From: an uncultured Akkermansia sp.
Lineage (GTDB): Bacteria > Verrucomicrobiota > Verrucomicrobiia > Verrucomicrobiales > Akkermansiaceae
Direction of reading: 5' to 3'
NCBI GenBank assembly: GCA_949296365.1
Contig: CASFPZ010000003.1
Location: forward strand, 1 to 64,000
DNA: 64,000 nt
The notes below the pieces were generated by a model that saw nothing but the letters and a program-made list of their open reading frames with translations, ran no database searches and had not been told where the DNA came from. The position numbers and the translations under genes were made by a program. Each line of letters opens with the position of its first letter. Positions within the stretch are counted from its first letter, which is position 1. Positions 54,384 through 60,525 of the stretch are shown one piece after another.

Positions 54384-54881
54384 ATGAAAGCCTATTACAT
54401 TTTCCAGCAAGCGGACGAAGAAACGATTAGCGACATTCTGGATTGGATGCGTAACCGTGAACGGGCTATTTACCGGGCCGCCGTACGCGAGCTTGGTGCG
54501 CTGAAGAAGTTGCGTCCCCAATATATTCAACAAAAACCTCTCCAAGAGCAATTCCTCTTCCTGAAAAAGATGCTGTCTTGGAAGCCTAGCGAAGAGATTG
54601 GCGACCACTTGCTTCAAGTTTGGCTGTTGCGCAAACATGAACCCATGTTAGTAGAATTCCTTGATATTTTGGGAATTGATCACAACGGACACGGTGTGGT
54701 TGATGTCCTCCCTGAATCGCTTGATAAGGAAAAACTTCAAAAAGCTGTTGACCGCCTTTTTGAAAAATATCCAGCTGGCGTAGCGTCTGTGTATCTTCAG
54801 ATGTTCCAGTTGCAGACGGAACAAGGGTGGGATGAACTTGCTGAAATCCTTGCTAACGACCCCCGTGTAACAATCCGGTAG
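54384..54881 (+). CDS. Conserved-looking helical protein of unknown function
   Basis: The 165-residue protein is soluble and mostly helical, without a signal or membrane segment. Its first half is basic (MRNRERAIYRAAVRELGALKKLR). A middle part, FLDILGIDHNGHGVVDVLPE, has an EF-hand-like or acidic-loop look but not the full calcium motif. The coding quality is good. I do not recognise the family. It precedes the Toprim gene by 98 bases. Confidence 0.6.
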   Translation: MKAYYIFQQADEETISDILDWMRNRERAIYRAAVRELGALKKLRPQYIQQKPLQEQFLFLKKMLSWKPSEEIGDHLLQVWLLRKHEPMLVEFLDILGIDHNGHGVVDVLPESLDKEKLQKAVDRLFEKYPAGVASVYLQMFQLQTEQGWDELAEILANDPRVTIR

Positions 54882-54979: not shown

Positions 54980-55675
54980 ATGGATCTGTCACTACCACCA
55001 GAAAAAGGGAATCAGATCGATTTCTCTGCATTTTATCAGGAAGCATGTAATCATGTCGGCGAAACTGATTATTTGCAGAAACGAGGATTGAGCCCTGAAG
55101 CGATTAAGCATTTTCGGCTAGGCTATTGCGCTCATTGGATCAATCCAAGGCGACCCGAGGCTCCTGCTGAACCCCGTATCATTATCCCCGTTGACAATCA
55201 GGCCTATCAGGCCAGGGACCCTCGAATCCCATGTTATGGCCCTAAAAAACGCTATAACGGGGTTGGTCTGGGCATTTTCAATAAGGAAGTCCTCAAAGTG
55301 GGGCGTCCCGTTTATATTGTGGAAGGGGAATTCGATGCTATCAGCATTCACGAGGTTGGGGGCTTGGCTATTAGTATTTCCGGATTAGGCGGCGAGAAGA
55401 GATTGTTGGAGTATTTGAAAGACAACATCCCAACTGTACCGTTGATTATTGCGCTAGATCACGAAGTTAGCGAAAATCTGACCTTTACCATTCATAGAAT
55501 GCAACAAGGATTTCAAAAACTTGGAATTCGTTACATGCAATGGAATCCCTATGGCAAATATAAAGATGCCAACGAGGCCTTTCTTAACGCACATGAAGAG
55601 TTTGCTCAGGCCATCGCTGAAGGCGAGGCGTTAGCCGAAGCGTTATCGAGCCCGGACGTGGATCCTGAGGCTTGA
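54980..55675 (+). CDS. Orphan Toprim-domain protein (primase-like fragment)
   Basis: The 231-residue protein starts with a linker like that of integrative-element primases (FSAFYQEACNHVGETDYLQKRG, then LSPEAIKHFRLGY). A Toprim domain follows, with VYIVEGEFDAIS (Glu115) and LIIALDHE (Asp160, with Glu in place of the second Asp). There is no CHC2 zinc finger, RNA polymerase core or helicase. It could be a nuclease-like Toprim protein or a domesticated remnant of a mobile-element primase; the tRNA cluster nearby is a typical integration site. Confidence 0.75.
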   Translation: MDLSLPPEKGNQIDFSAFYQEACNHVGETDYLQKRGLSPEAIKHFRLGYCAHWINPRRPEAPAEPRIIIPVDNQAYQARDPRIPCYGPKKRYNGVGLGIFNKEVLKVGRPVYIVEGEFDAISIHEVGGLAISISGLGGEKRLLEYLKDNIPTVPLIIALDHEVSENLTFTIHRMQQGFQKLGIRYMQWNPYGKYKDANEAFLNAHEEFAQAIAEGEALAEALSSPDVDPEA

Positions 55676-58212: not shown

Positions 58213-60525
58213 ATGAAGAAATTTACATTGGGAATTGATTTTGGCACGACGAAGACCTTGGTGTCGTGGTTTAATGAAGAAACGGGGCGTCCTCAGACGG
58301 TACATCTGGGAGATGGCAAAGATAGCGTTCCTACTGCCGTGTATGTTGATGAAAATGGGGACATGTTGTTTGGGGAAGAGGCTGACGACAATATCGAATT
58401 TGGCCCGGAACGGTATCGCCGTGGCTTCAAGATGAAGCTGGGGAGGTCTCAACCTGTTTTGTCGGTCCGGCAAGGAGATCGTTATGTCAAGTATACGGCG
58501 AAGGATTTGACTCGGGCCTTTTTGGAATACGTGCTGCATCGGGTTGAAGAAGAGGTCTTCATGGGCAACAAGGTGGGAAAGGTTGTCATCACGTGTCCCG
58601 CTCTGTTTTCGCCCATGCAGAGGGAGCAATTGCGCGAAGCGGCCATGGAGGCGGGAATGGTCGACGTGGAGTTGGCGAGTGAGCCGGAAGCGGCTGGATA
58701 TGCTTTTTGCAGGCTGTGCCCTGATGGAGCCTTTCAGGGGAATGCGTTGATTGTTGATTGGGGCGGCGGAACGCTGGATATGGCGTTGGCGTCGCGTGAC
58801 AAGGAGGTAATTCGTATTGATCGCAAATACACGACCGGAGACGAAACGATGGGGGGCGAAGTATTTGATGAGAAATTGTGGAACGAAGTGGTGAGCCGCA
58901 TAATCAAATTGGGCGGTCCTGACCTGAATCAGGAAGAGCTTATTGTTCAGGCGATGCAATTTCAAAAAGTGCGGCAGGCCAAAGAGAGGTTGTCCAGCGC
59001 GTCTGAGCAGAAAATCCGTTTGAGCAGTTCGCAAGGGGCATGCCCGAGCTTGTCATTGACGCGAAAAGAATTGGAAGAAGTCATCCGCAAAGATGTCGAC
59101 AAAGCGGTTGCATTAGCGCAACGTTTAATGAAAGGGATATCCGGCTTGTCAATGAAGCCGAAATTGTTGCTTCTGGTCGGTGGTACTAGCCAGATTCCTT
59201 TGATTGCGTCTCAGATGGAACAAGCGACAGGGTTAGTTTGCCGCAAGTGGGAGTTGAGGCGCGAGGCGGTCAGTTTGGGCGCTGCCTTGCTGGCGCATCG
59301 GAATGTTTTGTCACCACAAAAGACAACGTCTCCTGATAATGAGAAACTGCCCCAGAAACTTAAGGTGGCTTTAGATAAGCCCTCCTCATCTCCCCAAGTA
59401 GTTGCCTCACCCAAGCGGGAACCATCCAAACCTAAACCGGAACTGCCTCCGCTGGCTGTTGAGGTTTATTTGAATCTCACGGAGATCATGAATGGCTGTA
59501 CTGTAAGTCAAGTCATTGAAGGTCGCCGTGTTTCGATTGAGATCCCTGCGTGTACTCTTAGTTTGATATTACCCGCCGGGACTGTGCCGGGAAAGGGATT
59601 AATTACTGTTCAGGTGAAATTGCTTCCTGGAATCGATATTAATAAAGTACTTTATGAAGGGAGTGGTCTCCCAGTGTTACAGGCTGCGGCTAAGATGGGG
59701 AATAGGAATATGGTGAGAACAGCTATTCGATTGGGAGCGGATGTGAACGCGAATAATGGGAAGGCATTGGTTAGTGCAGCGGCGGAAGGTCATTTGGAAG
59801 TAGTGAAGGAATTGTTGAGAAACGGAGCGGATGTGAATGCGCGTGATGGGTGGGCATTGAGGAGTGCAGCATCTAATGCTCATTTGGAAGTAGTGAAAGA
59901 ATTGTTGAGGAGCGGGGCGGATGTGAATGCGCATAATGGGAGTGCCTTGGGGAATGCAGCTTACAATGGCCATTTGGAAGTGGTGAAGGAATTGTTGAGA
60001 AGCGGGGCGAATGTGAACGCGGGTAATGGGGGGCCTTTGAGGTGTGCAGCGGAGAAAGGTCATTTGGAAGTAGTGAAGGAATTGTTGAGGAGTGGAGCGA
60101 ATGTGAATTTGAAAAATTCTAATGGAGATACAGCCTTGGCGTTGGCCAAAAAGCACTACCATACTGCCATAGTCTCTTATCTTAAAGCACATGGAGCAGT
60201 AGATAGCGATTGTTTCATCACGACGGCCATATGCGAGCATATCGGGAAACCGGATGATTGTTATGAATTGGAGGTATTGCGAGAGTTCCGAGATTCCTGG
60301 TTGCTAAAACAGGTGGATGGAGAGCAACTGGTGGATGAGTATTACCGTATTGCGCCGCATATCGTGGAGCGAATCAAGGCGTCTGGAGAAGCAGACGAAG
60401 TTTATTCAGATTTGTTGGAGCGATATATAGAACCGTGCGTGAGGTTGATCGAAGCAGAGAAGCAGGAGCAGTGCTGCGCGTTGTACCAGACGATGGTCGA
60501 TGAAATGAAGTCGAGATATCTTTGA
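58213..60525 (+). CDS. Hsp70 ATPase - DnaJ-CTD-like - ankyrin - CFI-box fusion protein
   Basis: The 770-residue cytoplasmic protein starts MKKFTLGIDFGTTKT. Residues 1-365 are a full Hsp70-type ATPase with phosphate loops at 7-15, VDWGGGTLDMA (181-191) and GGTSQIP (323-329). The DnaK substrate-binding domain is absent. A Pro/Lys linker leads to a segment (about 415-470, VEVYLNLTEIMNGCTVSQV, VSIEIPACTLS, LPAGTVPGKGL) resembling the first C-terminal peptide-binding domain of DnaJ. Five or six 30-residue ankyrin repeats (485-660) and a C-terminal CFI-box (CFITTAICEHIG...LREFRDSWL, 667-720) follow. It may be a specialised chaperone that selects clients through ankyrins. Confidence 0.85.
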   Translation: MKKFTLGIDFGTTKTLVSWFNEETGRPQTVHLGDGKDSVPTAVYVDENGDMLFGEEADDNIEFGPERYRRGFKMKLGRSQPVLSVRQGDRYVKYTAKDLTRAFLEYVLHRVEEEVFMGNKVGKVVITCPALFSPMQREQLREAAMEAGMVDVELASEPEAAGYAFCRLCPDGAFQGNALIVDWGGGTLDMALASRDKEVIRIDRKYTTGDETMGGEVFDEKLWNEVVSRIIKLGGPDLNQEELIVQAMQFQKVRQAKERLSSASEQKIRLSSSQGACPSLSLTRKELEEVIRKDVDKAVALAQRLMKGISGLSMKPKLLLLVGGTSQIPLIASQMEQATGLVCRKWELRREAVSLGAALLAHRNVLSPQKTTSPDNEKLPQKLKVALDKPSSSPQVVASPKREPSKPKPELPPLAVEVYLNLTEIMNGCTVSQVIEGRRVSIEIPACTLSLILPAGTVPGKGLITVQVKLLPGIDINKVLYEGSGLPVLQAAAKMGNRNMVRTAIRLGADVNANNGKALVSAAAEGHLEVVKELLRNGADVNARDGWALRSAASNAHLEVVKELLRSGADVNAHNGSALGNAAYNGHLEVVKELLRSGANVNAGNGGPLRCAAEKGHLEVVKELLRSGANVNLKNSNGDTALALAKKHYHTAIVSYLKAHGAVDSDCFITTAICEHIGKPDDCYELEVLREFRDSWLLKQVDGEQLVDEYYRIAPHIVERIKASGEADEVYSDLLERYIEPCVRLIEAEKQEQCCALYQTMVDEMKSRYL
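59701..60150 (+). repeat. Tandem 90-base repeats encoding ankyrin motifs
   Basis: Units begin at 59701 (diverged), 59791, 59881, 59971 and 60061. The last four start with nearly the same bases (CATTTGGAAGTAGTGAAGGA) at exact 90-base spacing, encoding HLEVVKELLRxGAxVN. The high DNA identity implies recent duplication or gene conversion. Confidence 0.9.

What the first reader, a model, noticed from the sequence alone, without database searches (positions are those of the whole stretch)
58213..60525. Hsp70 ATPase domain fused to a DnaJ-CTD-like segment, ankyrin repeats and a CFI-box
The ATPase domain is intact, but the normal substrate-binding domain is replaced by three other modules. One chain would combine an Hsp70 motor, a J-protein-like client-binding segment and a repeat scaffold. 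The CFI-box is a C-terminal module of unknown function found in varied bacterial proteins. The Hsp70 and ankyrin calls are direct; the DnaJ-like call rests on pattern only. This is the best single candidate for an undescribed chaperone-type system here.
Basis: partly seen in the sequence, partly recalled or inferred. Interest (0 to 1): 0.78.

Follow-up and report, generated by a model that had tools for sequence, protein, structure and literature searches.

The report
Hsp70 motor with swapped client-binding tail
A gut Akkermansia gene joins the ATP-driven motor of an Hsp70 chaperone to a piece of its partner DnaJ, ankyrin repeats and a CFI-box; it belongs to a module-swapping family that accompanies a pair of dynamin-like membrane GTPases and is probably a recognition switch for that system.

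Summary
In detail: window 58213-60525 is one intact 770-aa ORF with an Hsp70 ATPase head (6-371), ankyrin repeats and a CFI-box. The uncertain DnaJ call is upheld at family level: a profile of this segment and five relatives finds only DnaJ/Hsp40 chains among 177,635 PDB sequences, and matches DnaJ CTD I at 97.8% (80 shuffled controls at most 1.8%). AlphaFold2 was inconclusive there. In another Akkermansia, a relative carries the whole zinc-bearing DnaJ C-terminal half, 90% identical to that genome's own DnaJ, inserted in frame at the same place; a sister protein shows the empty site. Assembly error is unlikely. ATPase residues are intact, but J-domain contacts, linker and substrate-binding domain are gone. 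The heads belong to an accessory operon (C39-like peptidase, two LeoA/LeoBC-like dynamins, 1-4 Hsp70 heads); across 76 Akkermansia genomes head and dynamin co-occur (17 of 18 against 0 of 58). The window gene is a dispersed copy outside the operon. Its tail was exchanged with a paralogue, and its ankyrin contact positions diversify. Best reading: an ATP-gated recognition switch of a dynamin-centred, possibly anti-phage system. Function is untested.

The parts
58213..60525 (+). whole gene, 770 aa, ATG start; the ORF could extend to GTG 58141 but homology begins at 58213
   Evidence: paralogues align from residue 1
58213..59307 (+). Hsp70-type ATPase head (residues 1-365), catalytic residues intact, no VLLL linker
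   Evidence: PF00012 6-371 1.4e-36; AF2 pLDDT mostly above 90, Foldseek to DnaK NBD 1e-22; residue mapping
59308..59439 (+). Pro/Lys/Ser-rich linker (366-409), predicted disordered
   Evidence: pLDDT below 50; 93% nt identity to paralogue while the heads are 68%
59440..59646 (+). DnaJ CTD I-like segment (410-478), no zinc finger
   Evidence: structure inconclusive
59647..60195 (+). ankyrin repeat domain (479-661)
   Evidence: Pfam Ank_2/Ank; AF2 helix pairs, pLDDT mostly above 85
59734..60108 (+). tandem DNA repeat of 90 bp x 4.2 inside the ankyrin domain: 30-aa ankyrin units with variable contact positions
   Evidence: pN/pS 1.11 at unit positions 6-18 against 0.10 elsewhere
60211..60426 (+). 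CFI-box (667-738)
   Evidence: NF041770 6.1e-19, 67.6 bits over cut-off 40
60427..60522 (+). helical C-terminus after the CFI-box (739-770)
   Evidence: AF2 helix 751-769, pLDDT about 62-75; conserved with other CFI copies of this genome

Best explanation
The gene encodes an ATP-gated recognition switch of a dynamin-centred accessory system. Shown by sequence: an active-site-complete Hsp70 head, uncoupled from the usual J-domain and linker allostery, carries exchangeable binding modules (a DnaJ CTD I client-binding unit plus diversifying ankyrin repeats) and a C-terminal CFI-box. Relatives of the head sit directly behind a paired dynamin-like GTPase operon with a C39-like peptidase, and the two co-occur across Akkermansia. 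Inferred: the tail captures a misfolded, foreign or stress-marked protein; ATP hydrolysis by the head changes its grip or its oligomeric state; and this controls assembly or disassembly of the dynamin pair on the membrane (compare Hsc70/auxilin uncoating of clathrin) or licenses the peptidase, most likely in defence against phage or envelope damage. The window gene is a dispersed copy with its own tail that would plug into the operon at contig C14 of the same genome.
For: Catalytic residues conserved, J-contact residues and linker lost. DnaJ CTD homology. Independent in-frame capture of a complete DnaJ C-terminal half at the same site in L077, with the empty-site sister L071. Operon order TM - C39 - DLP1 - DLP2 - Hsp70 head(s) in Akkermansia, Verrucomicrobiaceae and (without the first two genes in view) Kiritimatiellae; DLP and head adjacent in nearly all loci holding both. 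Heads in 18 of 76 and DLP2 in 17 of 76 Akkermansia genomes, 17 shared, Fisher 5e-16. DLPs match LeoBC/LeoA of PADLOC (4e-21, 3e-18, 1e-13). Tail exchanged between paralogues: head 68% nt, linker-DnaJ-Ank cap 89-93% nt. Diversified ankyrin contact positions. Published context: DynA gives phage resistance (PMC8844932, abstract); a DLP next to BDLP1 carries a DnaJ-like domain (PMC6104087); GTPase plus Hsp70 conflict systems exist (PMC7159879).
Against: The window gene itself has no dynamin gene beside it, so its tie to the system is by family and genome. The operon-proximal head of the same genome (C14, L040_7) is a pseudo-ATPase (K70L, E171T, T199G) and the next head there lacks its N-terminal part, so the home operon may be decaying. 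The window segment is a degenerate half-CTD and may not bind clients. No defence genes were identified next to it. Genomes are not independent in the Fisher test and the 1e-40 cut was chosen after seeing the hits (1.6e-13 with three weaker heads added). No functional data.
Confidence: 0.5

Rival explanations
1. Integrated decoy or bait: the DnaJ piece is not a working client binder but a mimic of a host chaperone part that phage proteins attack or recruit; binding of the phage protein to the bait flips the Hsp70 head and triggers the dynamins, as integrated domains do in plant NLRs.
For: In L077 the insert is a fresh copy of that genome's own DnaJ (90%), without J domain, G/F region and last ~27 residues; captured-module effectors and decoys were proposed for GTPase/chaperone conflict systems (PMC7159879); phages such as lambda need DnaJ (established knowledge).
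Against: The same position in other members holds ankyrin or Sel1 repeats, which are generic binders; the window copy is far from any extant DnaJ; no phage partner is known.
Confidence: 0.2
2. Stress chaperone: a self-contained Hsp70/Hsp40 hybrid that holds and releases clients with ATP, unrelated to the dynamins beyond ancestry.
For: Motor residues intact and a client-binding part in cis; the gene stands alone.
Against: No linker, no J-domain contacts, no lid, so no known route from ATP hydrolysis to client grip; patchy accessory distribution; many relatives have only ankyrin or Sel1 tails.
Confidence: 0.17
3. Decaying duplicate: one of many birth-and-death copies without present function; repeats and modules reshuffle by recombination only.
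For: Several copies in the genome are broken or truncated (C66, C14 second head, CFI remnant after C3:75113); many lie at contig ends.
Against: The window ORF is intact over 770 codons with all motor residues; ankyrin framework codons are under strong purifying constraint (pN/pS 0.10).
Confidence: 0.12

Closest known systems
DnaK / Hsp70 (PF00012; NF001413)
   Same: ATPase head with the phosphate, catalytic and adenosine motifs; Foldseek 1e-22 to DnaK NBD
   Different: no substrate-binding domain, no VLLL linker, J-contact residues changed; 128 bits against a 648-bit equivalog cut-off
DnaJ / CbpA C-terminal domain (PF01556)
   Same: CTD I sequence pattern around the IPAG-type motif; the family profile finds only DnaJ chains in PDB
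   Different: no J domain, no zinc finger, no CTD II, no dimerisation tail in the window protein; IPAC instead of IPAG
Eleos / LeoA-LeoBC dynamin-like defence system (PADLOC)
   Same: the operon that the heads accompany encodes two LeoA/LeoBC-like dynamins
   Different: adds a C39-like peptidase, a TM protein and Hsp70 heads; weak to the curated LeoA model (15.7 of 325 bits); the window gene is not in the operon
GTPase-centred conflict systems with HSP70 (Kaur et al. 2020, PMC7159879)
   Same: GTPases with Hsp70, including a version without the peptide-binding domain, and a DnaJ-domain fusion; variable effectors
   Different: their GTPases are GAP1-type, not dynamins, with tubulin/FNIII/GrpE partners; no Hsp70 head-DnaJ CTD or Hsp70-ankyrin-CFI fusion appears in the passages read
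CoCoNuT CnuD Hsp70-like proteins (PMC11090510)
   Same: Hsp70-like ATPases built into a defence system with added repeats
   Different: they keep NBD and SBD, are attached to McrBC-type systems and are predicted poor ATPases

Membership tests
Hsp70/DnaK chaperone | ATPase domain with catalytic residues (E. coli T11/T12, K70, E171, D194, T199) | tested here: met
   all conserved (K73, E157, D182, T187 in the protein)
Hsp70/DnaK chaperone | hydrophobic interdomain linker and C-terminal substrate-binding domain | tested here: not met
   homology ends at 371, no VLLL, no SBD
Hsp70/DnaK chaperone | J-domain contact residues (R167, N170 and others) | tested here: not met
   R167 to E, N170 to S, D393 absent
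Hsp70/DnaK chaperone | ATP-dependent client binding and release | not testable with these tools
   needs purified protein
J-domain protein (DnaJ/CbpA) | J domain with HPD | tested here: not met
   none in the protein
J-domain protein (DnaJ/CbpA) | C-terminal client-binding domain homology | tested here: met
   at family level; window copy degenerate, AF2 inconclusive
Eleos / LeoABC | paired LeoA/LeoBC dynamin-like GTPases encoded together | tested here: inconclusive
   operon DLPs hit LeoBC/LeoA profiles, but far below the curated NCBIfam cut-off; absent beside the window gene
GAP1-type GTPase/HSP70 conflict system (Kaur 2020) | GAP1 GTPase with HSP70 and FNIII/DnaJ or tubulin partners | not tested
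   no profile of GAP1 at hand; partners here are Dynamin_N
CFI_box_CTERM (NF041770) | score above curated cut-off at the C-terminus | tested here: met
   67.6 bits, cut-off 40

The most novel reading that the evidence does not exclude
A bacterial innate-immune-like receptor family built on an Hsp70 head: interchangeable sensor tails (diversifying ankyrin or Sel1 repeats and captured pieces of host chaperones as bait) read out infection and use the ATP switch to trigger a dynamin pair and a peptidase at the membrane. The capture in L077 would be a sensor caught in the act of being made.
Probability: 0.22. Interest if true: 0.88.

Novelty: new variant of a known kind. Interest (0 to 1): 0.7.

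Why it matters
Hsp70 and DnaJ normally work as separate partners, with the J domain as the contact. Here the motor took over the partner's client-binding part and dropped the J domain, which asks directly whether an Hsp70 head can drive a foreign binding module. The before/after pair L071/L077 gives a natural experiment. The tight link to a dynamin pair offers a testable case of an Hsp70-type ATPase acting on a membrane-remodelling GTPase in bacteria, and possibly a new anti-phage arrangement in a common gut genus.

Tried and rejected
Assembly artefact or fusion of two genes: rejected, because the paralogue 15 kb away has the same head-DnaJ-ankyrin order, several other Akkermansia genomes hold head-plus-tail ORFs, and a single-contig genome (G015) holds head-DnaJ-Sel1. 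Phage or plasmid origin: no phage or plasmid record covers 80% of the protein, best 28-31% over the head only; seven viral contigs, weak. CFI-box function: no paper in the library mentions it, no solved relative beyond designed helical proteins (chance), varied hosts. AF2 on the full protein and on the DnaJ segment: head and ankyrins confident, segment and CFI-box not; no fold search was run on the low-confidence segment. A two-row alignment with L077 misaligned the segment to the zinc finger and was not used. Papers on natural Hsp70-Hsp40 fusions, or on dynamin with Hsp70 in defence: none found in the held library. Promoter/terminator scan: no more sites than shuffles give.

Full report
What is there. 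Window 58213-60525 (+) is one open frame of 770 codons. Pfam and NCBIfam see an Hsp70 ATPase domain at 6-371 (1.4e-36), ankyrin repeats from about 469 to 661 and a CFI-box at 667-738 (67.6 bits, cut-off 40). AlphaFold2 gives the head and the ankyrin domain with pLDDT mostly above 85-90, low confidence for 366-470, and helices of low to moderate confidence in the CFI part. The head's closest solved folds are DnaK NBDs (Foldseek 1e-22). The genome is an Akkermansia: its same-genus relatives are titled so.

The DnaJ-like segment. No library model hits 410-475 of this protein by itself. Five relatives carry the same ~70-aa segment at the same place, two of them with sub-threshold PF01556 matches at profile positions 3-52. 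The six-row alignment against 38 DnaJ CTDs of Akkermansia and relatives gave 97.8% for CTD I with the zinc finger cut out and 87% for CTD II; 80 controls with shuffled columns never exceeded 1.8%. The same profile searched without any prior choice against 177,635 PDB sequences returned 13 chains up to E = 10, all of them DnaJ/Hsp40 (best 8e-7). In 388 Verrucomicrobiota genomes it finds only this genome and G015 strongly, and otherwise mostly ORFs of about 320-370 aa, the size of CbpA/DnaJ-type proteins (their identity was inferred from size). Single-sequence AlphaFold2 of the segment failed (pLDDT 45), though its order of strands and one short helix is compatible. I regard homology as established for the family and function as open for the window copy.

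A capture seen in the act. In L077 (Akkermansia MAG, 1202 aa) the same kind of head is followed by the complete DnaJ C-terminal half: PF01556 3.6e-48 and zinc finger PF00684 1.8e-12, no J domain, then a Sel1/TPR tail. The insert is 90% identical to residues 120-351 of that genome's own DnaJ; J domain, G/F region and the last ~27 residues are left out. L071, from another genome, is the same protein without the insert, the border falling at ...NSSDN|SLYRKG.... The 10% difference from the local dnaJ and the two in-frame junctions speak against misassembly, but it is one contig (G356:C68 is the same contig). So a DnaJ client-binding part sits in this slot in two different forms, at least one of them a recent and separate acquisition.

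The system. Relatives of the head stand directly behind a conserved block: a small TM/coiled protein, a C39-like peptidase (PF13529 1.7e-5; DxCA and ND(S/P)G motifs conserved), two dynamin-like GTPases (Dynamin_N 5e-20 and 3e-20), then one to four Hsp70 heads with different tails: ankyrin, Sel1, TM, zinc ribbons, DnaJ CTD. In this genome the block is at contig C14:4445-13949. The dynamins hit LeoBC and LeoA of PADLOC; Leo proteins as the Eleos system is my recollection, and Eleos is called a dynamin-like defence system in PMC11811056. Among 76 Akkermansia genomes the second dynamin occurs in 17 and the heads (E <= 1e-40) in 18, with all 17 shared (Fisher 5e-16; 1.6e-13 with three weaker heads added). 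The single exception, G357, has its head on a partial ORF (391 aa; the match starts at query residue 123) and probably corresponds to L078, which begins at a contig end. Phylogeny makes the counts non-independent.

The window copy. It is outside the block and nothing of the block lies near it. It is one of about ten dispersed copies or pieces in this genome; its head groups with the genome's own operon head. CFI-boxes occur in six places here and in none of the other Akkermansia genomes sampled. Two facts point to a recognition role. Against the paralogue at C3:75113 the heads are 68% identical in DNA, whereas linker, DnaJ segment and ankyrin cap are 89-93%: the tail moved as a unit. Within the 90-bp ankyrin repeats, pN/pS is 0.10 in the framework and 1.11 at unit positions 6-18; the variable positions 7, 10, 13, 14, 17 and 18 correspond, from my knowledge of designed ankyrin proteins, to the contact surface (only four repeats, no significance test).

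Mechanism. All motor residues are present, but the linker, the J-contact residues and the substrate-binding domain are gone, so ATP hydrolysis cannot be coupled as in DnaK. I propose that the head switches state with ATP while the tail holds a target, and that this sets assembly or disassembly of the dynamin pair or the activity of the peptidase. Shown: modules, homology, co-occurrence, module exchange. Inferred: target binding, coupling, defence. A DLP neighbour of BDLP1 carrying a DnaJ-like domain (PMC6104087) and phage resistance by DynA (PMC8844932, abstract) make both steps plausible. Kaur et al. 2020 (PMC7159879) described GTPase-centred conflict systems with Hsp70, with and without the peptide-binding domain; that is the closest described idea, with a different GTPase and no such fusion in the passages I read.

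Verdict. A real, unusual architecture for which I found no prior description in the held library; new variant of a known kind rather than a new kind.

Noticed in passing
L077:7352-10960 (+), CANQSS010000068.1: Hsp70 head with a complete in-frame DnaJ C-terminal half (zinc finger included) and Sel1 tail; L071:10001-12856 is the same protein without the insert.
   Followed up: yes
L040:9623-11401 (G000 C14): The operon-proximal head of the window's genome is a pseudo-ATPase (K70L, E171T, T199G), and the next ORF (L040:11343-13358) lacks the N-terminal part of its head.
   Followed up: partly
L039:10490-12052 (G000 C62, contig end): Two Hsp70 heads fused in one open frame; the frame runs off the contig.
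   Followed up: no
G000 contigs C62, C64, C15, C55, C76, C38: Copies of the family lie at contig ends, so assembly broke in these repeats and the true copy number is unknown.
   Followed up: partly
L038:4984-5220 (G000 C3, about 76,980-77,240): Remnant of a CFI-box in a shifted frame behind the paralogue; the paralogue now ends in a hydrophobic, TM-like stretch (GCFILIAVFVLVMILVRCVG).
   Followed up: no
L040:5259-6023 and relatives: C39-peptidase-like protein with conserved DxCA and ND(S/P)G motifs usually just upstream of the dynamin pair; no curated family fits it well.
   Followed up: partly
L083, Leifsonia sp. Leaf264, L083:9989-11938: Hsp70-head protein between dynamin-like genes in an actinobacterium: the pairing may be far wider than Verrucomicrobiota.
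   Followed up: no
window 54980-55675 (+): Stand-alone Toprim/DnaG-N-like protein of 231 aa next to a 165-aa unknown ORF (54384-54881).
   Followed up: no
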